Shown here piece by piece: positions 50,976 through 64,000 of a DNA stretch of 64,000 nucleotides; within the stretch, counting starts at the first letter, position 1; every line of letters starts with the position of its first letter. Made by a program: the position numbers and the translations under genes. The DNA lies in assembly GCF_000969415.1 (NCBI RefSeq), contig NZ_JZEX01000119.1, positions 62,001-126,000 of the forward strand, written 5' to 3'. The DNA comes from Devosia geojensis (lineage in GTDB: Bacteria > Pseudomonadota > Alphaproteobacteria > Rhizobiales > Devosiaceae). A model generated the notes under the pieces. The model ran no database searches and was not told the origin of the DNA. It saw only the letters and a program-made list of their open reading frames with translations.

Positions 50976-51929
50976 GTGGAAGCAGCCAAGTTCGAACGGC
51001 GCGACGGGCGTTGGGGAGCGGTGCGCGGCAACTGGGCGACGCTGCTGCTGCCGATAGCGGAAGACGATTCGATCGACTTCTCCCGCCTCGCCGACGAGAT
51101 GGACACGCTCGTTGCGGCGGGTGTGGACGGCGTCTATTCCAACGGCACGGCGGGGGAGTTCCACAACCAGACCGAGGCCGAGTTCGACGCCATCCAGCAG
51201 ATGCTGGCCGATCGCTGCGGCGCGGCTTCAGTCCCGTTCGTGATCGGCGCCTGCCAGCCGGATCCGCGCGTTTCGCTCGAGCGGGTGCGCCGGGCTGCCG
51301 CGCTGCGGCCTGAAGCCATCCAGGTGATCCTGCCCGACTGGTGGCCGGTGACGATGCCCGAGGCGCAAGACTTCCTCGATCTCGCGGCGCAGGCGGCCGG
51401 TACCGTTCCGCTGATCCTCTACCACCCGCCGCACGCCAAGCGGGTCTTCGCGCCCGAGCAACTGGCGGAAATTCTCGCCCCCTTCCCCAACGTCGTCGGG
51501 ATCAAGATGGGCGACGGGGACGCCGACTGGTATGCGCAAGCGCGCCGGCATCTCGGCGATATCGGCATCTATGTTCCAGGTCACCATCTGGCGACCGGCG
51601 TCAGCGAAGGGGTGGCGGCGGGGGCGTTCTCGAACGTCGCGTGCCTCAGCCCGTCCGGCGCGCAGCGGTGGACGCAGCTGATGGCAACGGACCTTGAGGC
51701 CGCGCTCGGCATCGAACGGAAGCTGCGCTCGTTCTTCGACACCCACATCGTTCCTTTCGGCAGGGTGCACGGGTATTCCAACGCGGCGCTCGACAAACTG
51801 CTGGCCGCAATCGGCGGCTGGGCGGATGTGGGCACCCGTTTGCGGCGCCCCTATCGCTGGATCGATCCGCAGGTCGTTCCGGCCCTGCGCCGGGAAGCGC
51901 GGGCGGCCTTACCCGAGATCATGGGGTGA
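50976..51929 (+). CDS. DapA/NanA-family lyase or dehydratase no. 2
   Basis: 317 residues; GTG start at 50976 with GGGAGGA five bases upstream. Schiff-base Lys177 (VVGIKMGDGDADW), Tyr149 (PLILYHPPHAKRV), entry motif GVYSNGTAGEFHNQ. It differs from the paralogue at 45669 around the Lys (KMGDG versus KDSSG), so the two probably act on different keto-acids. Coupled to the following sulfatase gene, whose ATG lies 5 bases after its stop. Confidence 0.9.
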   Translation: MEAAKFERRDGRWGAVRGNWATLLLPIAEDDSIDFSRLADEMDTLVAAGVDGVYSNGTAGEFHNQTEAEFDAIQQMLADRCGAASVPFVIGACQPDPRVSLERVRRAAALRPEAIQVILPDWWPVTMPEAQDFLDLAAQAAGTVPLILYHPPHAKRVFAPEQLAEILAPFPNVVGIKMGDGDADWYAQARRHLGDIGIYVPGHHLATGVSEGVAAGAFSNVACLSPSGAQRWTQLMATDLEAALGIERKLRSFFDTHIVPFGRVHGYSNAALDKLLAAIGGWADVGTRLRRPYRWIDPQVVPALRREARAALPEIMG

Positions 51930-51934
51930 ACGCC

Positions 51935-53398
51935 ATGGCCAAGCCCAACATCCTGATGATCATGACGGACCAGCAGCGGCGCGACACGCTCGGTGCCTAT
52001 GGCTGCGACTGGATCCCGACGCCCAATCTCGACCGCCTCGCCTCGGAGGGCGTGGTGTTCGAGAACTGCACGGTCGACAACCCGATCTGCACCCCGTCGC
52101 GCGCCAGCATCTTTACCGGCAAGCCCGTACCGGACCATGGTGTCCTACGCGTCCATGACAACCTGCCGCCGGACGAACGCCTGTTTCCGGAACGGCTGCG
52201 GGACGAAGCCGGCTACCGCACGGCGCTTTTCGGCAAGCTGCACGTCAGCAGCCGCGTGCAGGAGCAGGAGAGCCGGCATCCGCACGACGGCTTCGACATC
52301 TACGAGTGGTGCCTGGACCCGACGGTCGCGCTCGACAGCCCGTTCAACGGCTATGCCGCCTGGATTGAAAAGACCGCGCCCGATTTCCTCGCCGCGTTGC
52401 GGCGGAACGGCCGGGGAGAGCTGCACCACCCGGAGGCCGTGCATTCGAGCAAATGGGCGGCGGACAGGACCATCGCATTCATCGAGTCGGCCAACGCAGA
52501 CCCGCGGCCGTTCTTCTGCCTGATGAGCCTCTTCGATCCGCACGACCCCTACGCGGACCACCCGCTCGCCGCGCGCGACCGGATCGATCCGGCGAGGATT
52601 CCTGTACCGATCCCGCCGTGGAGCGATCAGCCCGGATGCGTGCAGCGGGAACAGGAGGAATCTTACCTCGGGCGGTTCGGCGATTTCTCGGCGAACGAGA
52701 TCGCGGAAATCCGCTTCGGCTACGGCGCCTCCATCGCCTTTCTCGACGAGCAGATCGGCCGTGTTCTCGCGGCGCTCGAGGCCGCGGGGCTGACGGAGGA
52801 CACGCTGGTCATCTTCGTGTCCGACCATGGCGACCAGCTCGGCGACCATGGCCTCTTCGTCAAAGGGGTAGCCCTCTACGAGCCGACCGTCGGCGTGCCC
52901 CTTCTGCTGCGCTGGCCCGGCCGCATTGCCGCCGGTGAGCGCAGCACGGCCCTGGCGCAAGGACGCGACATCGCCGCAACCTGCCTGGCGGCGGCAGGGC
53001 TGGACACCGCGTCGTGTCCGCTGAGCGAGGACCTGGTGACCATGGCGTCACGCAACAAGGCCGAACGGACGGCGGCCATCTGCGCCTACCGCAACTCCGG
53101 AATCAACGCCGGCGGGCGTTTCTGGGGTCCTCCAATGCGCTCCACCATGGCACGCAACGGGCGTTTCAAGTTGACGGTCTACACCAGCGCGGACAGCAGC
53201 GAACGCGAGCTTTTCGACCTTGAGCTCGATCCGCAGGAGACCCGCAACCTCGCCGGCGATCCGGACCATGCGAGGACGGAACTCGCTTTGCTCGGCGAGA
53301 TAGCCGCGTTCGTCGACCATGAGGCGGCCATAGCCCTGCCCCGTGCGACCTCGTCCATTCCCAATGCCGCCCAGCGCCTGAGGAACAGCATCAAATAG
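51935..53398 (+). CDS. Cys-type S1 sulfatase, cytoplasmic, no. 3
   Basis: 487 residues from ATG 51935; a GTG at 51926 would add three residues and overlap the upstream stop. No signal peptide. Asp12 metal ligand (ILMIMTDQQRRD), formylglycine motif C52-T-P-S-R56 (NPICTPSRASIFTGK), SDHGDQLGDHGLFVKG. The CTPSR core equals the classical FGE recognition hexapeptide core. Choline-sulfatase-like architecture; substrate not assigned. In one unit with DapA-family gene no. 2. Confidence 0.93.
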   Translation: MAKPNILMIMTDQQRRDTLGAYGCDWIPTPNLDRLASEGVVFENCTVDNPICTPSRASIFTGKPVPDHGVLRVHDNLPPDERLFPERLRDEAGYRTALFGKLHVSSRVQEQESRHPHDGFDIYEWCLDPTVALDSPFNGYAAWIEKTAPDFLAALRRNGRGELHHPEAVHSSKWAADRTIAFIESANADPRPFFCLMSLFDPHDPYADHPLAARDRIDPARIPVPIPPWSDQPGCVQREQEESYLGRFGDFSANEIAEIRFGYGASIAFLDEQIGRVLAALEAAGLTEDTLVIFVSDHGDQLGDHGLFVKGVALYEPTVGVPLLLRWPGRIAAGERSTALAQGRDIAATCLAAAGLDTASCPLSEDLVTMASRNKAERTAAICAYRNSGINAGGRFWGPPMRSTMARNGRFKLTVYTSADSSERELFDLELDPQETRNLAGDPDHARTELALLGEIAAFVDHEAAIALPRATSSIPNAAQRLRNSIK

Positions 53399-53410: not shown

Positions 53411-54136
53411 TCAACGGCGGGCGCGGCGCCAGGCTTCGAACGCCTCAAGGTTGCGTGGGTCGGTCGCCGGGTAGAGCCCGGTGATCGACGCGCCGTCCTG
53501 GACGCGCTCCAGGACAAAGTCCTCGTAGGCCGTCATCTCCACCGCCTCTTCGGCAACCTCGTCCGCCAGATGCAAAGGGATCACGGCGACGCCCTCGCCG
53601 TCGCCCACGATCACATCGCCCGGCCAGACCGCCACGTCCCCGCAGCCGATCGGGATGTCCATTTCCAGCGCCTGGTGCAGCGTCAGGTTGGTCGGCGCGG
53701 AGGGGCGGTTGTGATAGGCGGGGAAGCCGAGGGCGGCGATCTCGGGGCTGTCGCGGAAACCGCCATCGGTCACCACGCCCTCGACGCCCCGGCGCATCAG
53801 GCGCGTGACGAGGATCGAGCCGGCCGAGGCCGCGCGCGGGTCCTTGCGGCTATCCATGACGAAAACGCAGCCGGGCGGGCAGGTTTCGACGGCCTTGCGC
53901 TGCGGATGCTCGGGATTGCGGAACACTTCGAGCCCGTTGAGATCCTCGCGGGCCGGAATGTAGCGCAGCGTGAACGCCTGGCCGACCATGGTGCGCTCTA
54001 CCGGCCCGACCGGGCGCACGTCCTGCAGGAACTGGTTGCGCAGGCCCCGCTTGAACAGCGCGGTGCAGAGCGTCGCCGTGCTTACTTCGCGCAGCTTGTC
54101 ACGTGTGGCCTCGCTCAGCCGGTTGTGCCAGGTCAT
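53411..54136 (-). CDS. RraA-family aldolase/decarboxylase-like protein
   Basis: 241 residues, GAGGAGG upstream. RraA/HMG-aldolase fold: GPVERTMVGQAFTLRYIP, VEGVVTDGGFRDSPEI with the conserved Arg and Asp of metal-dependent 4-hydroxy-2-oxoacid aldolases, and GDVIVGDGEGVAVIP. In catabolic clusters such proteins cleave 4-hydroxy-2-oxo acids or decarboxylate oxaloacetate rather than regulate RNase E. Last gene of the minus-strand run that begins with the alginate importer. Confidence 0.88.
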   Translation of the reverse strand: MTWHNRLSEATRDKLREVSTATLCTALFKRGLRNQFLQDVRPVGPVERTMVGQAFTLRYIPAREDLNGLEVFRNPEHPQRKAVETCPPGCVFVMDSRKDPRAASAGSILVTRLMRRGVEGVVTDGGFRDSPEIAALGFPAYHNRPSAPTNLTLHQALEMDIPIGCGDVAVWPGDVIVGDGEGVAVIPLHLADEVAEEAVEMTAYEDFVLERVQDGASITGLYPATDPRNLEAFEAWRRARR

Positions 54137-54161: not shown

Positions 54162-55409
54162 TCACCAGCGCGGCACGCGGCGCTCGTAGCCGGGATCGAA
54201 CTGCTTCATGTAGGCTGTATCGTCGCGCTCGCTGACGCCGCAGGTATCGTAGAGCGCGGCGAATTCGGCAAGCCTTGCCCTGTCGAGGCCAACGCCGAGA
54301 CCAGGGCCGGGCGGCGGCGCCAGCGTCCCCCGATCGAAGGCGAGCGGTCCGCCTTCGATGATGTCGACGCCCGTCCATGGATAGTGGGTGTCGCAGGCGT
54401 AGGAGAGGTTCGGGGTCGCGGCCGCGACATGCGTCATGGCCGCAAGCGTGATACCGAGGTGCGAGTTGGAGTGCATCGACACCCCGAGCCCCAAGGTCTC
54501 GCAGACCTTGGCAAGGTGCGTCGAGGCGCGCAGCCCGCCCCAGTAATGGTGGTCGGAGAGCACGATCCTGACCGCGCCCTTCCGCACCGCCTCGGCGATC
54601 TGGTCGAACTGCAGGACGATCATGTTGGTTGCGAGCGGCAAGCTGGTCGCCGCGGCGACCTCGGCCATCGCATCCATGCCGATGACCGGATCCTCGAGAT
54701 ATTCGAGCACGCCCTCGAGGCTGCGCGCGATGTGGATCGCGGTCTCGACAGTCCAGCCGCCATTGGGGTCGATGCGCAGCGGATGGCTCGGGAAGGCCTC
54801 GCGCAGCCTGCGCATGGTCTCGATCTCGAGAGCGGGCTCCAGCACTCCGCCCTTCAGCTTCAACGAGCCGAAGCCGTAGAGACCGACGAAGCGGCGCGCC
54901 TCTTCGACCATCGCTTGCGGGGTCATCACCTCGCCCCACTCGTCCGGCGCCTCGCCGATATGGCCGGCGAATTTGTAGAAGAGATAGGCCGCGAACGGCA
55001 CCCGGTCGCGCACCTTGCCGCCCAGCAGATCGTAGAGCGGCCGGCCGAGGAGCTTGCCCTGGATGTCCATCAGCGGCACCTCGAAGGCGCTCGTCACCAC
55101 ATCGGTCAACCGGTGGTCGGCGACCGCCGACTTCGCGTTGATGCCTCCGCCCTCGGGCAGGGCGGCAAGGACCCGCGCGTGCAGCTCGTGCAGGTGGAAA
55201 GGATCGAGGCCCACCAGGGCGGGCGCGGCCTTGCGCAGGCCGGCGAGCGCCTTGCTCGACCCGTAACTTTCGCCGAGGCCTAGCGTACCGTCATCGCAGA
55301 CGACCTCGATGATCGTGCGCAGCGCATAGGGCTGATGCACGCCCTTGCAGTTGAGGAGCGGCTTGTCGGGGATGGCGACGGGTGTAAGCCGGATCTCGGC
55401 GATGCGCAT
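54162..55409 (-). CDS. Enolase-superfamily sugar-acid dehydratase, glucarate-dehydratase-like
   Basis: 415 residues from ATG 55409; upstream frame extension lies in the neighbouring gene. Catalytic set of the glucarate dehydratase subgroup: Lys184-x-Lys186 (GSLKLKGG), Asp214 (RIDPNGGW), Glu239 (EYLEDP), Asn262 (LATNMIV), and the Asp286/His313 dyad (LSDHHYWGG, SMHSNSH). Dehydrates an aldarate or aldonate to a keto-deoxy acid in the cytoplasm. With RraA- and DapA-family enzymes nearby, a complete sugar-acid route can be drawn, but the exact substrate is unknown. Confidence 0.9.
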   Translation of the reverse strand: MRIAEIRLTPVAIPDKPLLNCKGVHQPYALRTIIEVVCDDGTLGLGESYGSSKALAGLRKAAPALVGLDPFHLHELHARVLAALPEGGGINAKSAVADHRLTDVVTSAFEVPLMDIQGKLLGRPLYDLLGGKVRDRVPFAAYLFYKFAGHIGEAPDEWGEVMTPQAMVEEARRFVGLYGFGSLKLKGGVLEPALEIETMRRLREAFPSHPLRIDPNGGWTVETAIHIARSLEGVLEYLEDPVIGMDAMAEVAAATSLPLATNMIVLQFDQIAEAVRKGAVRIVLSDHHYWGGLRASTHLAKVCETLGLGVSMHSNSHLGITLAAMTHVAAATPNLSYACDTHYPWTGVDIIEGGPLAFDRGTLAPPPGPGLGVGLDRARLAEFAALYDTCGVSERDDTAYMKQFDPGYERRVPRW

Positions 55410-55417
55410 GGGTCGCC

Positions 55418-56206
55418 TCACCACCAATCGGAGGCCGCTGCTGCGGCAAGCGCTTCGTCGAGGGACGGCAGCTGGGGATGCCACAAGCGCTCCCATTCGA
55501 GGCTGACGGGGAAAGCGACACCCTCCTCCTCAAGGCGGCGCCTGAGTGCAGCCATCGGGAAATCGCCAGCTCCAGGCAGCACATAAGCGCGTCCTTCGGG
55601 CGCAGGCGCGCTGTCCTTGACGTGCATGTGGACGACGCGGGCCGCGATTTCGCCCCAGGTCACGAGCGGGTCCGTGTCGCCCTTCGCCCAGGTGTGGTGC
55701 GCGTCCCAGAGGATGCGCGCTTGCGGCACCTCGCGGCAGAAGCGCGCGAGCGGCTCGTGATGCACCAGGGCGTCGTGGGTCTCGATCATCACGTCGACCG
55801 TCCATCCGCGCTTCTCGCGAAGGTCCGTCCAGAGGTCGAGGCGCTGGCGGGCCGCGGCGATGTCGGTATCCGTCAGCACCGTCCCGCCGTCGAAAACACG
55901 CAGGTTCCGTGCACCAACCGCCTCCGCCCAAGGGACGAACCGTTCCACTTCGGCGAGATCGAAAGCCTCGCCGAAGAGGCGCGCCGACGTGCCCATGGCG
56001 ACGATCGCCACGGACTGCAACGCGAGCCAGTCCGCCAGCGCCTCGGGGGATCCGAACTCGGCGGTGAGCCGGGCCGGGACATCCACCGATCCTGACAGCG
56101 CCCGAAGCTCGATCGCGCCGATGCCGTGGTGGACGGCGAGGTCCACGACCTGCCGCAAGGAAAGGTCGGGGCAGCCGAGGGTCGAGAAGCAATGGGTGAG
56201 GCTCAT
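55418..56206 (-). CDS. Sugar phosphate isomerase/epimerase-like TIM barrel
   Basis: 262 residues, xylose-isomerase-like fold. Metal/substrate residues are likely in VDVMIETHDALVHHEPL, RILWDAHHTWAKGD and ARVVHMHVKDS. Overlaps the dehydrogenase gene upstream by 4 bases (ATGA), and the dehydratase gene starts 8 bases after its stop. Isomerises a sugar or sugar acid; specificity unknown. Confidence 0.85.
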   Translation of the reverse strand: MSLTHCFSTLGCPDLSLRQVVDLAVHHGIGAIELRALSGSVDVPARLTAEFGSPEALADWLALQSVAIVAMGTSARLFGEAFDLAEVERFVPWAEAVGARNLRVFDGGTVLTDTDIAAARQRLDLWTDLREKRGWTVDVMIETHDALVHHEPLARFCREVPQARILWDAHHTWAKGDTDPLVTWGEIAARVVHMHVKDSAPAPEGRAYVLPGAGDFPMAALRRRLEEEGVAFPVSLEWERLWHPQLPSLDEALAAAAASDWW

Positions 56207-57276
56207 GCGATGCGGTCCAGTTCTGCGGCAGTGACGGGATGGAGCGGCGGGAGGCCGGCGACGTAACGCTCGATCTCGGTGATGGCGAGATCGGAAAGAC
56301 GCCGCAGCTCGTTGCCCTGCGCCCCGGCGATATGCGGGGTCAGGACGACGTTGGGCAGGTCGTAGAGCGTGCTTTCGGGCGGCAGGGGCTCGGGATCGGG
56401 CGTATCGATGAGGGCCGAAAGGCGGCCGGAAACGAGTTCGCGCTCAAGGGCGGCGTGATCGACGAGCCAGCCGCGCGCGGTGTTGATCAGTATGGCGTTG
56501 TCGGGCATCCGCGCCAGCTCGGCCGCGCCGATCATGTGCCGGGTCTCCGGCAGGATCGGCGCATGGAGAGATACGGTGTCGGACGAGGCGAGGAGATCAT
56601 CGAGCTCCATCTTCTCCGCGCCCAGCGCCTGGGCCTCGGCTGCATCAATGAAAGGATCATAGACGCAAACCTGGAAACCGGCATGCACGAGCAGGTCGAT
56701 GACCAGCCGGCCCGTCCGCGACGCTCCGACGATGCCGACGCGGCGGCGATAGTTGCCGAGATGGGGCGCATCGAGGCCGATACGCGTGCCGAAGCCGCCC
56801 TGCCCCCGCGCCCGGCGATGAGCATCGCGCAACCGGAATACGTCCTTGCCACACATGATGATGGCCGCGAAGGTGAATTCGGCGACCGGCACCGCCATCG
56901 CCGAAACCGCCGACGTGATCAGGATGCCGCGCTCCCAGAACGCGGGAGTGGTCACGGCGCGGATCGAGGCGGCGGTGTAGGCCACCATGCGCAGGTTCGG
57001 CGCTCGCGCGAGGCGCTCGGCGGTCAGCGCCGGAGCGCCCCAGGCGGCGAGGAGGATTTCGGCTTCCGCAAGCGCCGCCGCGCCGTCGGGAGACTCGAAG
57101 TCGGCGAACGCTTCTCGCGAGGCGATGCCGGCGACCGCATCGAGCCGCTCCCATTCGGCGGGGCCGAGGAAACCGCGCGGTAGTTCCGCGCGCATGGCAA
57201 GCGCCAGCTTCGGCTTTGCCTGCGACGCCCGTTTCCCGTTTGTCCCTGCGGGTGGCTGCTCGACCGCTTCGTGCAT
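56203..57276 (-). CDS. D-isomer-specific 2-hydroxyacid dehydrogenase
   Basis: 357 residues from ATG 57276 (GAGG upstream). NAD-binding Rossmann segment RVGIVGASRTGRLVIDLL, catalytic Arg in ILINTARGWLVDHAALERE, catalytic His in VVLTPHIAGAQGNEL. Interconverts a 2-hydroxy and a 2-oxo acid. Between the SDR and the TIM-barrel gene with spacings of 7 and -4 bases, so part of the same transcript. Confidence 0.9.
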   Translation of the reverse strand: MHEAVEQPPAGTNGKRASQAKPKLALAMRAELPRGFLGPAEWERLDAVAGIASREAFADFESPDGAAALAEAEILLAAWGAPALTAERLARAPNLRMVAYTAASIRAVTTPAFWERGILITSAVSAMAVPVAEFTFAAIIMCGKDVFRLRDAHRRARGQGGFGTRIGLDAPHLGNYRRRVGIVGASRTGRLVIDLLVHAGFQVCVYDPFIDAAEAQALGAEKMELDDLLASSDTVSLHAPILPETRHMIGAAELARMPDNAILINTARGWLVDHAALERELVSGRLSALIDTPDPEPLPPESTLYDLPNVVLTPHIAGAQGNELRRLSDLAITEIERYVAGLPPLHPVTAAELDRIA

Positions 57277-57283
57277 CGTCGCC

Positions 57284-58033
57284 TCAGGAATAGAGCACAC
57301 CGCCGTTGATGTCGTAACAGGCACCGGTGATGTAGGCGGCGTCCGACGAGGCGAGAAATGCCACCAGCGCCGCCACGTCCTCGGACGCGCCCTCGCGCTT
57401 GAGAGGCGCGGAACCGGCGACGCGCTCGCGCACCTCGGGCCTGGTGAAGGTGTCGTGGAAGGTCGTCGCGATCATGCCGGGACAGACCGCGTTGACGCGG
57501 GCGCGGGTGCCGAGCTCCTTGGCGAGGCCGCGCGTGAAGGTCATGACGGCGCCCTTGGAGGTGGCGTACGCGACCGCCCCCGGCCCACCGCCGTCACGAC
57601 CGGCCTGGGAGGAGAAGGTGACGATCGCGCCGCCGTCCCGCAGGTGCGGCAGCACCGCCCTGGCGGTGAGGAAGAGCGAGGTGACGTTGAGGTCCATCAC
57701 CTCGTGCCAGAAGGCCTCGTCCATCTCCGGCATGGTCTTGCGTGCAACGAGCCCGCCGGTGACGTGCACCAGGGCGTCGATGCCGCCGAAGTCCTTCACA
57801 ACCGTGCTGACCGCCGCCTCGACCTCGGGGGACCTGGTGAGGTCCGCCTTGTATGCCGCGGCGCGTCCGCCGGCGGTCTCGATCTCGACGACGACGGCAC
57901 GGGCGCCGGTTTCGGCTCCGTTGTAGGTCAAAGCGACCGCCGCGCCCTCGGCGGCGAACCGCAGGGCGCAAGCGCGGCCGATGTCGCGTCCGCCGCCCGT
58001 CACCAGAACCGTCTGCCCGTTGAACCGCTGCAT
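57284..58033 (-). CDS. SDR oxidoreductase, probable DEH (4-deoxy-5-hexoseulose uronate) reductase
   Basis: 249 residues from ATG 58033. Classical SDR: cofactor motif TGGGRDIG (12-19), catalytic Ser141/Ser142 (VTFSSQAGR), Tyr156-x-x-x-Lys160 (AYATSKGAV), C-terminal [11 protein letters not shown]. Starts 2 bases after the PL15 lyase stop. In Agrobacterium the gene next to the PL15 lyase Atu3025 encodes an SDR that reduces DEH to 2-keto-3-deoxygluconate; the same role is inferred here from position, not from specificity residues. Confidence 0.85.
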
Positions 58034-58035
58034 TC

Positions 58036-60363
58036 TCAAAAATCCTTGGCAAGTGTCAGCTTGAAACGCCGATCGTCGACGTCGGTGAAATAGATGTCGG
58101 TGGTAAAGCCTTGGTCGTCGATGAAGCTGAAGATGCGACGCGGCGCATCCAGCGCATAGGGGGCAAGGAGCGTGACAAGCACATGCTTGCGGGCGGCCGG
58201 CAGGCTGGCGCGCAGGTGATGATGGAGCGCGAGCCCTTCGAAATCGGCCGGATCGATGCCGGGAAAGCCCTCGACGGCCGAGAGCGCAGGCGCGCCGGCC
58301 GAGGAGAAGACGAACTGGCCGGAAAACCCGGCCCGCTCGCCGCGATAGCGAAAGCTCGATTTTCCCGCATCGACCGGCCCGACCGTATGGCAGAGCCAAT
58401 CGAGCGTCTGCGGCTGCGCAGTCTCCGCCCGGTCGACAAAGACGAAGTAACTGTCGGCAACGAAATGCACGTCGCGCTCGACGCGCAGGACAAGGTCGTT
58501 GGCAACGCGGTAAGCCGGGGTCGCATCGGCACGGATCAGCACATGGCCGGGTTCCTCGACGACGTCGAGGATCGTGCCCGCGGCCTTTCGGGCCAGCGCC
58601 TTATCCTTTTCGGCATACTGCCCCTGCCCGCCGATCAGGACGGCGTTCTTGGAACGCGTCTGGCGCCGCCACTCGCGATGCATGCTCGAGCCGAACGCGA
58701 CGTAGTAGCCCGACTGGATGGCAAGATCCTCGCCGTAGGCGTGGAGCAGGAACGCGTTCTGATCGCCATGGCTGTGGCTGAGGGAGCCGTAGGAGCTGGA
58801 CTTGAACAGGAACTGGATGTGCCTCGAAGGATCGCCCATGTGCTTCTGGATCGCGACCCAGCCGATATCCTTGAACCAGCGCACCGGCGGCAGATTCTCG
58901 GGTTCAACGGCGGCGACCGGCGCGTGGTCGTGGTTGTAGGTCAGATCGTCGAAATTGAGGTCCCACCAGCCGTAGTTGTAGAAGGCCATCTCGGTGCCGG
59001 CGGCGTCGGCCTTGAGGCGCTCGAAATACCACTGATAATGCCCGTTGCCGGTGACACCGGCGAACTGGCGCACATTGTAGCCGACCTTGAGGCCCGGCAA
59101 GTCGCCGAGAGTCGAGTCGTCGCCGAAGCATGCCCGGCGCGTGCCCGGCGCCTTGGTGTAGAGCGGGAATGCGCCGGTGTTCTGCAGGAAGGGACGCTTG
59201 TAGAGATCGAGCCCCAGATATTTGACGATGAGGTTGGCCGCCTCGATGAAGTAGGCGATGCCGGTCATCCAGTAGTGCGGCCCCTCCGCCCAGCCACCGT
59301 CCGTGCCGGCCCAGGGCGAATAGAGGGTCGCGAGGAAATCGACGGTATAGTCGAGCCAGCCCGTCGCTTCCTCGCTTTCGCCGTCGAGGGCGATGCAGGT
59401 GGGGGTCAGGACCGCCGAGAGCGAACGTACCGCGTGGCTGTCATAGGGGAAGACGTGAATGCGGGCGTGGGCGATGACGTGGTCAGCCACCTCGCGGGTG
59501 CGCTCCAGCAGAACGGCGCGCACCGTCTCGCGCTCCTCGGCCGACAGGTGATCGTAGAGCCAGTCATAACCCCAGGCGAGCGCCACGACGACGCGGAAGG
59601 CCGCCTCGTCGTTATAGGCGCGCGAGGTCGGTCCCCTGGTGTCCCAGTCGGCCACCGCCAATAGCCAGTCGCGGGCCTTGTCGAGGAGACGCGTGTCGTC
59701 CAGCACCCGGCCGGCGATGGCGAGGTGCCGGATGGCATAGATCGTCTCCTGGCAGTCGATGTACATCTGCCGCCAGAGCGTCGCGACCCGCACGTTGTTC
59801 GGATAGGGCTTGGGCTCCTCGATGATCGGGCGCTCGATCCAGGGTTCGACAGAACCGGCATAGAAGCCGTCCCAGCCGTAGGCGGCCGGATCCTCGGCGA
59901 CGCGGGCGCGCAAGGCATCGAGCTCGGCGCCATCGAGCCAGAGGCGAGGATGCGCGGCCTTGACGCGCATGCGCCGCTCGGCGGGTGCTGGCACCGGCGT
60001 TTCGGGTAGTCCTTCGGAGAGGTCGAATTGGCGGACGGCGCTCCATTGCGAGCGCGGCGCCTCCCCGGCTTCGTCCCAGAGCGCATAGCGCCAGTACCAG
60101 GTGCCGGGGGCAAAAGTTTCGGGCGGCGTGAAGAAGTTCCAGGCGAGATCGGCATATCGGTAGGTTCCGGGACCGAAACTGGCATCCTGCGCCAGTTCGA
60201 CCACGTAGCGCGACGCATCGTCGATGTCGGGCAGCCAGGAAAAGCGCGGCGGGTTCTCCGTCGGCGGGCGATCCGCGTCCGGAGCATATCCGATGGTGAG
60301 CGAACCCGGACGGGGTTCATCCAGCGCGGTTTTGCGCAAGCTTTCCGGGGCGGACGATCGCAT
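58036..60363 (-). CDS. PL15 exolytic alginate lyase (Atu3025-like)
   Basis: 775 residues from ATG 60363 (AGGAG upstream); a TTG at 60390 is less likely. N-terminal beta-sandwich ([22 protein letters not shown]), central alpha/alpha barrel, C-terminal heparinase II/III beta-sandwich. His310 ([10 protein letters not shown]), Tyr364 (EGPHYW) and His530 ([15 protein letters not shown]) fall one residue before the catalytic His311, Tyr365 and His531 I recall for Atu3025, which has 776 residues. It would release unsaturated monouronate (DEH) from alginate oligomers. No signal peptide, so it acts in the cytoplasm on imported oligomers, consistent with the AlgQ-type receptor gene directly upstream. 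Confidence 0.9.
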
Positions 60364-60398
60364 CGACTGCCGGACTCCTGTTCTTTCCAAAATCGATC

Positions 60399-60424
60399 GG
60401 GCGGCGGCAGGGAGGCCGCCGCCC
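60399..60424 (-). terminator. Strong hairpin between AlgQ-type and lyase genes
   Basis: Perfect 10-base stem GGGCGGCGGC (60399-60408)/GCCGCCGCCC (60415-60424) with a 6-base loop, 14 bases after the SBP stop. On the minus strand TTTT follows 6 bases beyond the stem. Probably a leaky terminator that keeps lyase expression below that of the binding protein. Confidence 0.6.
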
Positions 60425-60438
60425 AGGAGGACGAGGCC

Positions 60439-62004
60439 CTATTGGGCCCCGTATTGCCGATCGTAGGCGGCCTGCATGACCGCGATGACCCTGTCGTAGC
60501 CCATGCTGTTGAGCCGCTCGACGTAAGCGTCCCAGCCGGTGTCGACATCCTCGGCGCCCAGCACCCAGGTCTGCTGCATCTCGGTCATGTAGGTAAGGAT
60601 GCTCGGCCAGTAGCGGTCGTAGATCTCCTTCTCCTCGGCGTTGAGGGCGACACCCAGGAATTCCTCCCTCAGGCAATCGCACTCCTCGTACATCTCGATG
60701 CCTTCGAGGGCGATCTCGTTGGTCCATTGCCGCTCGTATTCGTAGTCCTGCCAGAAGCCGCGCGGCACCTGGGCACCGACCTCCCAGAGCTGGGCATTGA
60801 CCGGAGTGTCGCTGGTCAGCACCTCCTCGGTGAACTGCGGCTTGCCGTCGACCATCTCGTAGGTCAGGCCCTCGACGCCGAAGTTGGAGAGAATGCGCCC
60901 CTCCGGAGAGAACCAGAAGTCGAAGTACTTGATGGTCTCGACCGGGTGCTCGTTGGTCACCGAGATCGCCCAACCGGCCGGCTGCACCTGCTGGCGGCGC
61001 GCGTCCTCGAAGCGGTCGCCCGAGACGGTCCTGGGCGGCAGCATGGGCCGCAGGCTGAATCCTTCGATCTCGTCGGCAAGCGCGGTGTTGTAGGTGGCGG
61101 TGCTGGCGAACCAGTCATGAATCATGCCGCCGAGATTGTTGCCGAGTAGGTATTCGCGCGAGCGCGAGCCGCGGGTGAAGACTTCCTTGTCGATCAGCCC
61201 TTCCGCATACCAGTCGGCCACATGCCCGATGCCGACCTTGTAGTTCTCCTCGGCCCAGGGGTGGCGGACCTTGCCGTCATAGATGGCGAAATCCCCGTAA
61301 CGCTCGGAACCCGAGACGCGCGCGTCCCAGAGGTTGATGAGACGCACGGCGTCCACCTCGTCGCGGGCAAAGTAAGGCACTTCATCCTTGATGCCGTTGC
61401 CGTTCGGGTCCTGGTCGCGGAAGGCAACGAGGACGTCGTAGACCTCCTCGGGCGTCTCGGGCACTTCGAGCCCCAGCTTTTCCAGCCAGTCGTAGCGGAT
61501 GAACCACCCGCGCGAGAACTTGCCATCCGGCACGTAGGGGATGAAGTAGATATGCCCGTCCGGACCCGAAATGGCCTGACGGACCTCCGGTCGGCTGTCG
61601 AAGAACGCCTTGAGGTTGGGCGCATGCTCTTCGATCAGGTCGTCGAGCGGGATGAACGCGCCTTCGAGCCCATAACGGATGAAGTCGTCCTTCAGGGTCG
61701 GGCCGGCGTCGCCGCCGACGATGTCGGGCAGATTGCCCGAGGCTATGAGCAGGTTGAAGGCATCGCGGCTCGACGTGGTGGCGAGCGAGGCGGTGTTGCG
61801 GATGTGGATGCCGGTCTTTTCGGCAACCACCTGCTCGACCGGCCAGTCCTGCGTGTAGACGTACTTGTCGCGGAAATGGAAGTGCATGGTCAGTTCGAGC
61901 GGCTCGTCGACGATGCGTGTCGTCTCCTGGGCCGATACCGCCAGCGGCGCGACCAGCGCCGCCGTCAGTGCGAGCGCCGAGACGCCTTTTAATATCGCTT
62001 TCAC
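60439..62004 (-). CDS. algQ: Alginate oligosaccharide-binding protein, AlgQ type
   Basis: 521 residues, GTG start at 62004 behind GGGAGGG. Signal peptide to about residue 25 (VAPLAVSAQ). The whole sequence tracks Sphingomonas AlgQ1/AlgQ2 as I remember them: HFHFRDKYVY (HMHFRDKWVW), FIRYGLEGAFIPL, LKAFFDSRPEV, IYFIPYVPDG, GFWQDYEYERQWTN, and AYDRQYG at the C-terminus. The EF-hand-like calcium site D199-P-N201-G-N203-G-I-K-D207-E208 is intact. Periplasmic receptor delivering alginate oligomers to AlgM1M2SS. Confidence 0.93.
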   Translation of the reverse strand: MKAILKGVSALALTAALVAPLAVSAQETTRIVDEPLELTMHFHFRDKYVYTQDWPVEQVVAEKTGIHIRNTASLATTSSRDAFNLLIASGNLPDIVGGDAGPTLKDDFIRYGLEGAFIPLDDLIEEHAPNLKAFFDSRPEVRQAISGPDGHIYFIPYVPDGKFSRGWFIRYDWLEKLGLEVPETPEEVYDVLVAFRDQDPNGNGIKDEVPYFARDEVDAVRLINLWDARVSGSERYGDFAIYDGKVRHPWAEENYKVGIGHVADWYAEGLIDKEVFTRGSRSREYLLGNNLGGMIHDWFASTATYNTALADEIEGFSLRPMLPPRTVSGDRFEDARRQQVQPAGWAISVTNEHPVETIKYFDFWFSPEGRILSNFGVEGLTYEMVDGKPQFTEEVLTSDTPVNAQLWEVGAQVPRGFWQDYEYERQWTNEIALEGIEMYEECDCLREEFLGVALNAEEKEIYDRYWPSILTYMTEMQQTWVLGAEDVDTGWDAYVERLNSMGYDRVIAVMQAAYDRQYGAQ

Positions 62005-62026
62005 AGGTTTCCCTCCCTTTGTGAAA

Positions 62027-62908
62027 TTACTCTTTTACCCCGCCCAGCAGGATGCCCTTCGAGAAGTACTTCTGGGCGTATGGGTAGATGATCAGGACGG
62101 GGATGATGGATGCGACCATGATCGCCGCCGTGATGGTCTCGAAGGAATATTGCGCCGTCAGCAGGCTGGAGGCGAACTCGTCGTTGGAATTGAGGTCGAC
62201 GATGATGCGCTTCAAATAGACCTGCAGCGGGATCTTCTCTTCACCGCGCAACAGCACCATCGACCAGAAATAGCCGTTCCAGCGCGAAACGATGCAGAAG
62301 AGCGCGACGGTGACGATGGCGGGCTTGGAAAGCGGAATGAACACCTTCCAGAGGAGCTGCAGCTCGCTCGCTCCATCCATCTTGGCCGCTTCCTCGAAGG
62401 ATTTGGGCACTGCCTCGAAGAAGTTGCGCAGGAGGATGACGTTGAAGGCGTTGCAGGCGAACCCGATGATGATGCCGAAGCGGCTGTCGAGCAGGCCGAG
62501 ATCGCGCATGTTGAGGAAGAACGGGATCATGCCGGCGTTGAACCAGAGCGTGAACGCGATCATCAGGTTGAAGAAGGTGCGCCCGCGCAGCCGCTTCCTC
62601 GAGAGCGCATAGGCGCCCGGCACCATGATGAGAAGGCTCATGGCCGTGCCGCCGAAAGTGTAGATGAAGGTATTGCCGTACGAGATCCAGAACATCCGGT
62701 CCGACAGCACCCGCTCGTAGGCGGCCAGCGTCAGGTCGACGGGCCAGAGCACCACGCGACCGGAAGTGACCGCGGCGCCCGACGAGACCGAGGCGGAAAG
62801 GATGTAGATGAAGGGATAGAGCGTCGACAGGACGAAGAGCCCGAGGAGGAACGCGTTGGCGTAGCCGAAGATCTTGTCGCCGCGGGTGTAGAGGTTGGAT
62901 GTGCTCAT
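62027..62908 (-). CDS. algM2: Alginate ABC transporter permease, AlgM2 type
   Basis: 293 residues from ATG 62908 (GAGGAGG upstream). Six TM segments; TM1 AFLLGLFVLSTLYPFIYILS. EAA loop SFEEAAKMDGASELQLLWKV, C-terminal YPYAQKYFSKGILLGGVKE, typical of the LplC/AlgM2 branch. Gene order AlgS-AlgM1-AlgM2-AlgQ is the same as in Sphingomonas A1. Confidence 0.92.
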   Translation of the reverse strand: MSTSNLYTRGDKIFGYANAFLLGLFVLSTLYPFIYILSASVSSGAAVTSGRVVLWPVDLTLAAYERVLSDRMFWISYGNTFIYTFGGTAMSLLIMVPGAYALSRKRLRGRTFFNLMIAFTLWFNAGMIPFFLNMRDLGLLDSRFGIIIGFACNAFNVILLRNFFEAVPKSFEEAAKMDGASELQLLWKVFIPLSKPAIVTVALFCIVSRWNGYFWSMVLLRGEEKIPLQVYLKRIIVDLNSNDEFASSLLTAQYSFETITAAIMVASIIPVLIIYPYAQKYFSKGILLGGVKE

Positions 62909-62918
62909 CGTTTCCTCC

Positions 62919-63851
62919 TCACCACAGCGACGTCGAAGAGACCTTCCGGCTGATCCGGTTGGCCGTGTAGACGAGAACGAAGGCGATGACCGCGTTGAAG
63001 AGCCCGGCGGCCGTGGCGAGGTCGTACTGGGTGCCCTGCAGGCCGGTGCGGTAGATGAAGGTCGAGACGACATCGGCCGTCTGGTAGGTCGAGGGCCGGT
63101 AGAGAAGGATGATGTATTCGAACCCGACCTCGACCAGGTTGCCGATGCGGATGATCAGCATGATGATGATCGTGGGCAGAATGCAGGGCAGCGTGATGCG
63201 CCAGACCATCTGCCAGCGCGAGGCGCCGTCGACCCGGGCGGACTCGTAGAGCGTCGGGCTCACCCCAGCGATGGCGGCGAGATAGACGATCGACTCGAAG
63301 CCGGCTTCCTTCCAGATGCTCGAGCCGATGAACACCGGCCGGAACCACTCCGGCTGGGTGAGGAAGTAGATCGGCGCGATGCCGAACCAGCCGAGCGCCG
63401 TGTTGACGATGCCCGTCGAGGGCGAGAGGAAGTTGATGACGATGCCGGCGACGATCACCACGGAGATGAAGTGCGGCAGGTAAACGATAGTCTGCGCCCA
63501 GCGCCTGGCGAGCGCGTTCTGCACCTCGTTGAACATCAGCGCCAGGATGATGGGTACCGGGAAGGCGAAGACCAGCCCCAGGAAGCTGATGGTGATGGTG
63601 TTCCAGAACGAGCGGATGAAGAGCTCGTTGGCGAAGAGCTCCTGGAAGTGGGCGAGGCCGACCCAGGGACTCGCCTCGATGCCGCGGAAGATCGAGAAAT
63701 CCTTGAAGGCGATCTGCAGCCCGTGCATGGGCTTGTAAAGGAAGACGAGGAACCAGATGATCATCGGAGCAACGAGCAGATAGAGCTGCCAATCGCGCCG
63801 CAGATCCTCCCCGAGGGTGCGCATATAATGTGAGAGCCTGACCTGCATCAT
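62919..63851 (-). CDS. algM1: Alginate ABC transporter permease, AlgM1 type
   Basis: 310 residues; adjacent ATG codons at 63851 and 63848 lie behind GAGGGGG. LplB/AlgM1 branch: cytoplasmic N-terminus RTLGEDLRRDWQLYLLVAP, long TM1 with FLYKPMHGLQIAFKDFSI, EAA loop TLYESARVDGASRWQMVWRI, C-terminal NAVIAFVLVYTANRISRK. The long N-terminal segment before TM1 is a known AlgM1 feature. Confidence 0.92.
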   Translation of the reverse strand: MMQVRLSHYMRTLGEDLRRDWQLYLLVAPMIIWFLVFLYKPMHGLQIAFKDFSIFRGIEASPWVGLAHFQELFANELFIRSFWNTITISFLGLVFAFPVPIILALMFNEVQNALARRWAQTIVYLPHFISVVIVAGIVINFLSPSTGIVNTALGWFGIAPIYFLTQPEWFRPVFIGSSIWKEAGFESIVYLAAIAGVSPTLYESARVDGASRWQMVWRITLPCILPTIIIMLIIRIGNLVEVGFEYIILLYRPSTYQTADVVSTFIYRTGLQGTQYDLATAAGLFNAVIAFVLVYTANRISRKVSSTSLW

Positions 63852-63858
63852 CGCCCCC

Positions 63859-64000
63859 TCAGCCGCGAGTCTTGAGGGTCTTGCCCGTTTCGGCATCGAA
63901 GACGTGCATGCGCGCGACATCGATGCCGAGCCGTTCGACGGACCACAACTCGGCGGTATCGAGAGGCGTCTCCGCCTTGGCGATGAAGGCCTGTCCGTTG
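63859..64000 (-). CDS. algS: ABC transporter ATP-binding protein C-terminus, AlgS type (partial)
   Basis: Only the last 46 codons are in the window; the gene continues past 64000. The readable end (LWSVERLGIDVARMHVFDAE followed by TGKTLKTRG) matches the C-terminal regulatory domain of MalK/UgpC-type ATPases, with the usual MHVFDAETG ending. Stop codon lies 7 bases before the AlgM1 start. Assigned as the AlgS-type subunit from position. Confidence 0.8.
   Translation of the reverse strand, partial: NGQAFIAKAETPLDTAELWSVERLGIDVARMHVFDAETGKTLKTRG

What the first reader, a model, noticed from the sequence alone, without database searches (positions are those of the whole stretch)
57284..64000. 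Complete alginate-oligomer import and cytoplasmic depolymerisation locus
AlgQ with an intact EF-hand-like calcium site (D199...E208), AlgM1, AlgM2, the AlgS end, a 775-residue PL15 lyase and an adjacent SDR appear in one tight strand. His310, Tyr364 and His530 of the lyase fall exactly one residue before the catalytic His311, Tyr365 and His531 recalled for Atu3025. This joins the Sphingomonas A1 import strategy with the Agrobacterium lyase/reductase pair.
Basis: partly seen in the sequence, partly recalled or inferred. Interest (0 to 1): 0.72.

Follow-up and report, generated by a model that had tools for sequence, protein, structure and literature searches.

The report
Alginate oligomer import and degradation operon
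This bacterium carries a standard gene set for importing short pieces of alginate and cutting them up inside the cell, and the same gene run holds extra sugar-acid genes that may recover the end sugar which each piece leaves behind.

Summary
The alginate reading is well supported (1316 bits to Atu3025, 113 to the PL15_2 heparinase), although the three catalytic residues alone do not separate these subfamilies.

The claimed novelty fails. Importer, lyase and SDR sit together in 58 of 80 named lyase loci, Agrobacterium included. The SDR as DEH reductase rests on context.

The operon is longer than reported, from a GntR gene outside the window to an RraA-family gene at 53411, and includes a glucarate-dehydratase-like enzyme (GlucD). 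Close GlucD copies track the lyase: the same 3 of 397 Rhizobiales genomes have both. Fifteen other lyase loci carry a D-mannonate-dehydratase relative instead; none of 80 carries both. I propose that these enzymes salvage the saturated uronate left from each oligomer's reducing end (probability 0.35). No reaction was measured, 40 of 80 loci show neither dehydratase within reach, and the mutual exclusion is not significant once relatedness is allowed for.

The parts
63859..64000 (-). 3' end of an AlgS/UgpC-type ATPase gene; whole gene is 63859-64968 in window coordinates, preceded by a GntR-family gene at 64996-65787, both read from the contig
   Evidence: ORFs in L004; ATPase passes the UgpC cut-off, 487.7 against 432 bits
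62919..63776 (-). AlgM1-like permease (start approximate)
   Evidence: BPD_transp_1 49.1 bits; homologue in 75 of 80 lyase loci at >=50% identity
62027..62911 (-). AlgM2-like permease
   Evidence: BPD_transp_1 53.2 bits; homologue in 76 of 80 loci
60439..62004 (-). AlgQ-type receptor with calcium motif DPNGNGIKDE at residues 199-208
   Evidence: 654 bits to AlgQ1, 636 to AlgQ2; motif positions except 205 and 206 invariant in 78 of 78
58036..60390 (-). PL15_1-type exolytic oligoalginate lyase (775 aa from Met10)
   Evidence: 1316 bits to Atu3025 over its whole length; His310, Tyr364, His530 invariant in 81 of 81
57284..58033 (-). SDR, probable DEH reductase by context only
   Evidence: adh_short_C2; in 64 of 80 loci at >=50% identity; not specifically close to known DEH reductases
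56203..57276 (-). D-2-hydroxyacid dehydrogenase family protein; start chosen by eye
   Evidence: 2-Hacid_dh_C 150.6 bits; start candidates; in 19 of 80 loci at >=60% identity
55418..56206 (-). Xylose-isomerase-like TIM-barrel protein, role unknown
   Evidence: AP_endonuc_2 64.8 bits; model pLDDT 93.9, fold search not decisive; in 19 of 80 loci
54162..55409 (-). Glucarate-dehydratase-like enolase-superfamily enzyme (GlucD); start chosen by eye
   Evidence: MR_MLE_C 185.3 bits; 15 of 18 recalled GudD active-site positions kept; linkage to lyase
53411..54136 (-). RraA-family protein, last gene of the run; possible 2-keto-3-deoxy-hexarate dehydratase/decarboxylase
   Evidence: RraA-like 107.9 bits; passes NF006093 (PRK08245), 346.7 against 208 bits; same place in Devosia neptuniae

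Best explanation
An alginate-oligosaccharide utilisation operon in a Devosia-like bacterium, running from a GntR gene outside the window to the RraA gene at 53411. The AlgQ-type receptor captures oligomers in the periplasm and the AlgS/AlgM-type transporter imports them. The PL15_1 lyase releases 4,5-unsaturated monouronates one at a time; these become DEH, which the SDR probably reduces to KDG, and enzymes encoded elsewhere finish the pathway. Each oligomer also leaves one saturated mannuronate or guluronate. I propose (about 0.35 for this part) that uronate dehydrogenase encoded elsewhere oxidises it to D-mannarate or L-gularate (= D-glucarate), the GlucD-like enzyme dehydrates this to a 2-keto-3-deoxy-hexarate, and the RraA-family enzyme or KdgD makes alpha-ketoglutaric semialdehyde. 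Shown: gene content, homology, residues, conserved order, GlucD-lyase linkage. Inferred: operon status, substrate, and every catalytic step in this organism.
For: Core: full-length match to Atu3025, 1316 bits against 113 for PL15_2; receptor 654/636 bits to AlgQ1/AlgQ2 against 376/372 for the next group; conserved order with importer in 70 of 80 loci and SDR in 58 of 80; D. neptuniae has the whole run. Branch: of 18 GlucD hits in 47 lyase genomes, 15 lie at the lyase locus (positions compared by eye); in 397 Rhizobiales genomes the lyase and GlucD at >=60% identity occur in the same 3; all 7 plasmid records with GlucD at >=76.6% also carry the lyase, none of the 21 with weaker copies does; GudD active-site positions kept; a Bosea relative follows a uronate dehydrogenase gene; uronate dehydrogenase homologue and two KdgD over cut-off in this genome; RraA protein FlDet acts on KDGR in alginate catabolism (PMC8563752 abstract and passages).
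Against: No activity was tested. D. nitrariae, the nearest lyase relative, has no GlucD at E<=1e-80 anywhere, and 40 of 80 loci show neither dehydratase within reach, some being cut short. 13 of 20 lyase plasmids have no GlucD at that limit; in N. galegae the two genes are about 0.9 Mb apart. GlucD is far below the glucarate dehydratase cut-off, 251.8 against 828.7 bits. RraA is widespread without the lyase (360 plasmid records) and only weakly tied to GlucD (7 of 25 GlucD loci, 8 of 55 others). The SDR is not specifically a DEH reductase by sequence. The uronate dehydrogenase homologue's best NCBIfam model is a glucose-6-phosphate dehydrogenase, below cut-off. The hydroxyacid dehydrogenase and TIM barrel have no place in the scheme.
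Confidence: 0.85

Rival explanations
1. The downstream genes (hydroxyacid dehydrogenase, TIM barrel, GlucD, RraA) form a sugar-acid module for another compound met together with alginate, under the same regulator, and do not handle alginate products.
For: GlucD relatives at 49-57% sit in unrelated sugar loci in Bosea, Paraburkholderia, Burkholderia and Cupriavidus; RraA is common without the lyase; D. nitrariae does without GlucD.
Against: Close GlucD copies are confined to lyase genomes in the 397-genome sample and in plasmids, and occur at the lyase locus in several families, in different positions relative to the lyase.
Confidence: 0.4
2. RraA serves only the oxidative route of DEH itself (DEH to KDGR by the SDR, KDGR to alpha-ketoglutaric semialdehyde), as described for Flavobacterium UMI-01; GlucD does something separate.
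For: FlDet is an RraA-family enzyme that accepted KDGR alone among the keto acids tested, and FlRed both reduces and oxidises DEHU (PMC8563752 passages). RraA occurs near the lyase in 8 loci without GlucD.
Against: RraA directly follows GlucD here and in D. neptuniae and a sugar-acid dehydratase gene in Rhizobium etli. I could compare only 16 published FlDet residues by eye.
Confidence: 0.25
3. The natural substrate is a heparinoid or another uronate polymer rather than alginate (PL15_2-like reading).
For: The PL15_2 enzyme has an equivalent His/Tyr/His set; a sulfatase gene lies beyond the RraA gene at 51926-53398; a GH88-type gene cluster member occurs in 9 of 80 lyase loci.
Against: 1316 against 113 bits; AlgQ-type receptor. 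The sulfatase is convergent and has no homologue at >=50% identity in any of the 80 loci; no GH88-type gene was seen in this operon.
Confidence: 0.04

Closest known systems
Agrobacterium Atu3025-type locus (GntR, ATPase, two permeases, receptor, PL15 lyase, SDR and downstream genes)
   Same: Same order of genes; in Agrobacterium pusense and A. salinitolerans plasmids the order continues through hydroxyacid dehydrogenase, TIM barrel and GlucD
   Different: Those plasmids have an SGNH hydrolase after the SDR, absent here, and no RraA listed directly after GlucD
Devosia neptuniae plasmid copy (NZ_CP104964.1)
   Same: All eleven genes in the same order, RraA included
   Different: One extra gene, an SGNH hydrolase, after the SDR; carried on a 533 kb plasmid
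Sphingomonas sp. A1 AlgQ1/AlgQ2-AlgM1M2SS importer with A1-IV lyase
   Same: Receptor at 654/636 bits to AlgQ1/AlgQ2; same kind of importer (system described in PMC8286568 passages)
   Different: I did not test for the A1 pit or an endolyase of strain A1 here; no PL7 or PL5/PL17 lyase was found in this genome. AlgM/AlgS and A1-IV were not compared directly
Flavobacterium sp. UMI-01 oxidative DEHU route (FlRed, FlDet, FlDeg)
   Same: An RraA-family gene tied to alginate catabolism (PMC8563752 passages)
   Different: No aldarate dehydratase step in the passages read; full FlDet sequence not compared
Glucarate dehydratase GudD (E. coli) and the uronate dehydrogenase route
   Same: 15 of 18 recalled active-site positions kept; a Bosea relative lies beside uronate dehydrogenase
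   Different: 35% identity to GudD, 251.8 bits against a cut-off of 828.7

Membership tests
PL15_1 oligoalginate lyase | Full-length similarity to Atu3025, above PL15_2 | tested here: met
   1316 bits to 3a0o against 113 bits to 6lja
PL15_1 oligoalginate lyase | Catalytic His311 and Tyr365 of Atu3025 | tested here: met
   His310 and Tyr364 present, invariant in 81 of 81; shared with PL15_2, so not discriminating
PL15_1 oligoalginate lyase | Place in a tree with PL15_2 and PL15_3 | not tested
   The tree built holds only the window and its 80 nearest kept loci
PL15_1 oligoalginate lyase | Exolytic release of unsaturated monouronate from alginate oligomers | not testable with these tools
   Needs enzyme assay
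AlgQ1/AlgQ2 receptor | Closest similarity to AlgQ1/AlgQ2 and calcium motif | tested here: met
   654/636 bits against 376 for the next group; motif intact
AlgQ1/AlgQ2 receptor | Binding of oligoalginate | not testable with these tools
   Needs binding assay; ligand-contact residues were not checked
AlgM1/AlgM2/AlgS transporter | Direct similarity to the strain A1 proteins | not tested
   Only the BPD_transp_1 domain, UgpC model and gene order
DEH reductase (SDR type) | Closer to A1-R/A1-R' than to other SDRs | tested here: not met
   4w7i 145.5 and 4tkl 143.4 bits against a FabG at 146.4 and 3edm at 394; the function is kept as a context inference only
Glucarate dehydratase (TIGR03247) | Score over the curated cut-off | tested here: not met
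   251.8 against 828.7 bits
Glucarate dehydratase-like active site | Catalytic and substrate-binding residues of GudD (positions recalled) | tested here: met
   15 of 18 positions identical; positions 103 and 104 differ and 266 falls in a gap
FlDet-type KDGR dehydratase/decarboxylase | RraA-family sequence close to FlDet | tested here: inconclusive
   RraA family met; FlDet residues 4-19 from the paper compared by eye, 9 of 16 identical

The most novel reading that the evidence does not exclude
PL15 alginate loci carry a second, undescribed branch that salvages the saturated uronate left from the reducing end of every imported oligomer. In Devosia, Agrobacterium and scattered other lineages it is oxidative: uronate dehydrogenase, a specialised D-mannarate/L-gularate dehydratase (the GlucD-like enzyme), then an RraA-family or KdgD dehydratase/decarboxylase. 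In other proteobacteria it is reductive, with D-mannonate dehydratase leading to KDG. The two enzymes replace one another from locus to locus, and each lands on one of the two known fates of DEH, KDGR or KDG.
Probability: 0.35. Interest if true: 0.6.

Novelty: new variant of a known kind. Interest (0 to 1): 0.4.

Why it matters
The core adds one more alginate-oligomer scavenger to a known kind and shows that the importer-lyase-SDR block is common in the nearest relatives. The linked dehydratase matters more: by arithmetic, a disaccharide leaves half and a trisaccharide a third of its residues as saturated uronate, yet the pathway passages I read in three papers describe only the route of DEH. 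If the branch is real it names candidate genes for that carbon, and the claim can be tested with a few purified enzymes.

Tried and rejected
Rejected: heparinoid specificity; the importer-lyase combination as new; the sulfatase, DapA-like gene, second GntR gene and peptide-type receptor on the far side as parts of the module (0 of 80 loci carry any of the four at >=50% identity). A route through an RraA aldolase, a hydroxypyruvate isomerase (TIM barrel) and a hydroxypyruvate reductase (hydroxyacid dehydrogenase) was considered and put second once FlDet was found to be an RraA-family dehydratase/decarboxylase. The TIM-barrel fold search gave many barrels of different function (best AsbF, 16% identity; 50 of 82 matches at E<=0.001 seen), and a sequence search of solved structures gave 0 hits.

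Weak or against: the exclusion of GlucD and D-mannonate dehydratase is 25 and 15 of 80 loci with 0 shared (p 0.004), but 8 and 15 of 61 outside the Rhizobiaceae/Devosia block (p 0.18). Over 48 genomes it is 16 and 17 with 0 shared (Fisher p 0.0002), but independent pairs give 7 pairs and median p 0.125. These genome counts depend on cut-offs set after seeing the hits: GlucD >=57% and D-mannonate dehydratase >=76%. With weaker hits counted, 5 GlucD genomes (G398, G399, G403, G404, G406) also hold a D-mannonate-dehydratase relative at 50-52%, and G419 holds GlucD at 56% with the other at 81%. Of the 17 close D-mannonate-dehydratase genes 9 lie at the lyase locus (one at its very edge) and 8 elsewhere (compared by eye). 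Only two of the 15 were scanned with the curated model. The GlucD search in 397 genomes scored at most four candidates per genome.

Literature: searches for alginate together with glucarate or mannonate dehydratase, uronate dehydrogenase or saturated uronates showed no account of this branch in the listings or the passages read. In one search only 10 of 101 papers were listed. Supplements were not searched and most subscription papers are not held; the Atu3025 structure paper was not held. No listed paper (20 of 29) names Atu3026.
Full report
What is there. The window is bases 62001-126000 of contig C30 of a 4.47 Mb genome in 207 contigs. The nearest named lyase is from Devosia nitrariae, 84%, and D. 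neptuniae has the same gene run, so I call the host Devosia-like. On the minus strand the run starts outside the window with a GntR-family gene and an AlgS/UgpC-type ATPase, continues with two permeases, an AlgQ-type receptor, the PL15 lyase and the SDR, and ends with a D-2-hydroxyacid dehydrogenase, a TIM-barrel protein, a glucarate-dehydratase-like enzyme (here GlucD) and an RraA-family protein. The likely starts of the hydroxyacid dehydrogenase (57276) and GlucD (55409), chosen by eye, lie 7 and 8 bases after the preceding stop codons. I read these eleven genes as one operon; no transcript data exist.

Core function. The lyase aligns with Atu3025 from end to end at 1316 bits, against 113 bits for 6lja, the PL15_2 heparinase. 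His310, Tyr364 and His530 are as stated and invariant in 81 of 81 aligned lyases. The PL15_2 enzyme has His337, Tyr390 and His555 (PMC11921355 passages), which fall opposite in the alignment, so the three residues do not decide between alginate and heparin; overall similarity does. The receptor scores 654 and 636 bits to AlgQ1 and AlgQ2, against 376 and 372 for 5xs8 and 5gub. Its calcium motif is invariant at eight of ten positions in 78 of 78 receptors. The SDR is best matched by 3edm (394 bits, named only a short chain dehydrogenase) and is as far from the solved DEH reductases (145 and 143 bits) as from a FabG (146 bits). Its role rests on its place beside the lyase in 64 of 80 loci.

Not a new combination. 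The genome collection gave 287 confirmed relatives of the lyase, of which the best 80 were kept, so all counts below concern the closest relatives. Of these 80, 70 carry the ATPase, both permeases and the receptor at >=50% identity, and 58 also the SDR; some loci are cut by contig ends. Agrobacterium and Rhizobium loci have the same order. The lyase is rare in the order: 3 of 397 sampled Rhizobiales genomes, this one included, at E<=1e-150.

Not complete. Two KDPG-aldolase-family genes lie on other contigs, and the best KDG kinase candidate scores 265 bits against a cut-off of 400. No PL7 or PL5/PL17 lyase was found in this genome; the first PL7 search rang in no control genome, but the same searches rang in 6 (PL7) and 5 (PL5/PL17) of 26 genomes, 25 of them reached through lyase loci. 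The organism may depend on oligomers made by others; PL6 and other families were not searched.

The linked dehydratase. Fifty of the 80 loci were sent for a whole-genome GlucD search and 47 genomes were held. There were 18 hits at E<=1e-80 in 16 genomes. Comparing positions by eye, 15 of the 18 lie at the lyase locus (57-81% identity; for L007 the hit begins at a contig edge where the locus is cut, so that one is inferred) and 3 lie elsewhere (54-56%). In 397 Rhizobiales genomes 19 had a hit; the three at 60% or more are the three lyase genomes, the other 16 are at 41-47%. In one of the three (G134) the genes are on different contigs, and another (G361) has the same coordinates as the Neorhizobium huautlense hit and may be the same genome. 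On plasmids, all 7 records with GlucD at >=76.6% identity also carry the lyase, 6 of them within 4 kb and one (Neorhizobium galegae) about 0.9 Mb away; none of the 21 records with weaker GlucD (56.3% or less) is among the 20 lyase records, and 13 of those 20 have no GlucD at this limit. D. nitrariae, the nearest relative, has none.

A second dehydratase at other loci. Fifteen of 80 loci carry a D-mannonate-dehydratase relative; the two scanned passed the curated cut-off (649 and 645 against 550 bits). GlucD is in 25 of 80, both in 0 of 80, neither in 40 of 80. On a quick tree of the lyases the GlucD label needs at least 10 changes (shuffled mean 22.3) and the D-mannonate-dehydratase label at least 10 (shuffled mean 14.0), with 9 each forced by starred branches. 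So both labels are clustered yet gained, lost or swapped repeatedly; truncated loci inflate this a little (9 changes for GlucD when only loci of 18 kb or more are used). Whole-genome exclusion is 16 against 17 of 48 with no overlap at the cut-offs chosen (Fisher p 0.0002), but not significant with independent pairs (median p 0.125).

What GlucD may do. It is 35% identical to E. coli GudD and keeps 15 of 18 positions that I recall from the GudD active site, including H32 and R422, recalled as contacts of the far end of the substrate. It is far below the curated cut-off for glucarate dehydratase, so I do not file it as one. A relative in Bosea (57.5% identity) directly follows a gene whose product scores 220 bits to uronate dehydrogenase structures. 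This genome encodes a homologue at 187 bits to the same structures, although its best NCBIfam model is a glucose-6-phosphate dehydrogenase below cut-off, and two KdgD over cut-off. PMC6695620 (passages) reports oxidation of L-guluronate to D-glucarate and of D-mannuronate to D-mannarate. By my own stereochemical reasoning, dehydrating D-mannarate, or L-gularate at C4/C5, gives the same 4-deoxy-5-keto-hexarate as oxidising DEH, the KDGR of Flavobacterium UMI-01. Classical glucarate dehydratase acts at the other end of D-glucarate (recalled), so the guluronate case needs a changed regiochemistry. In UMI-01 the RraA-family enzyme FlDet turns KDGR into alpha-ketoglutaric semialdehyde (PMC8563752 abstract and passages). 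In Rhizobium etli an RraA gene of 78% identity directly follows an arabinonate dehydratase gene, again a dehydratase-RraA pair. Exolytic alginate lyases are said to give saturated M and G units besides unsaturated ones (PMC5809466, start of abstract in the listing). Against a tight GlucD-RraA tie, RraA lies near the lyase in 7 of 25 GlucD loci and 8 of 55 others and in 360 plasmid records at large. The hydroxyacid dehydrogenase and TIM barrel (19 of 80 loci each) have no role in this scheme.

Verdict. The finding reads a known kind of operon correctly but overstates its novelty and completeness. The interesting part lies just downstream: a lyase-linked sugar-acid dehydratase for which I found no account in the searches listed.

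Noticed in passing
L010-L029 and L007, about 13.1-14.3 kb; L099:11025-12191; L100:11010-12179: An SGNH/GDSL hydrolase gene follows the SDR in 21 of 80 lyase loci (two members scanned) and in D. neptuniae and Agrobacterium plasmids, but not in this window. It might remove acetyl groups from bacterial alginate.
   Followed up: partly
window 51926-53398 (+), 50976-51929 (+): A sulfatase with a CTPSR motif and a DapA-like gene lie convergent to the operon; neither has a homologue at >=50% identity in the 80 lyase loci.
   Followed up: partly
L035:13575-14819 and eight other loci: A GH88-like gene lies near the lyase in 9 of 80 loci (one member scanned, 42 bits), which hints at substrates other than plain alginate in those lineages.
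   Followed up: no
L039:1600-3039 and 19 other loci: A MatE-family transporter gene lies near the lyase in 20 of 80 loci (one member scanned).
   Followed up: no
L105 (Agrobacterium salinitolerans pDG3-1c): The lyase operon sits beside trb conjugation genes on a 142 kb plasmid typed as conjugative, in keeping with its patchy distribution.
   Followed up: no
L108:581-2292 (own genome, contig C15): A second uronate-dehydrogenase-like gene overlaps a gene related to 4-sulfomuconolactone hydrolase (82.6 bits, below cut-off).
   Followed up: no
L118:6550-11497 (own genome, contig C164): KdgD over cut-off lies beside two genes that look by eye like enolase-superfamily enzymes and near a weak uronate-dehydrogenase-like hit, perhaps a general aldarate cluster.
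   Followed up: no
L121:5356-7239 (own genome, contig C152): A second heparinase II/III-type protein (627 aa, 25 bits) lies among genes that look by eye like a LacI regulator and a peptide-type ABC transporter.
   Followed up: no
L008 GlucD region (G399:C3:416888-418132): The search lists one TGA inside the aligned GlucD frame of this Rhizobium copy; I did not examine it.
   Followed up: no
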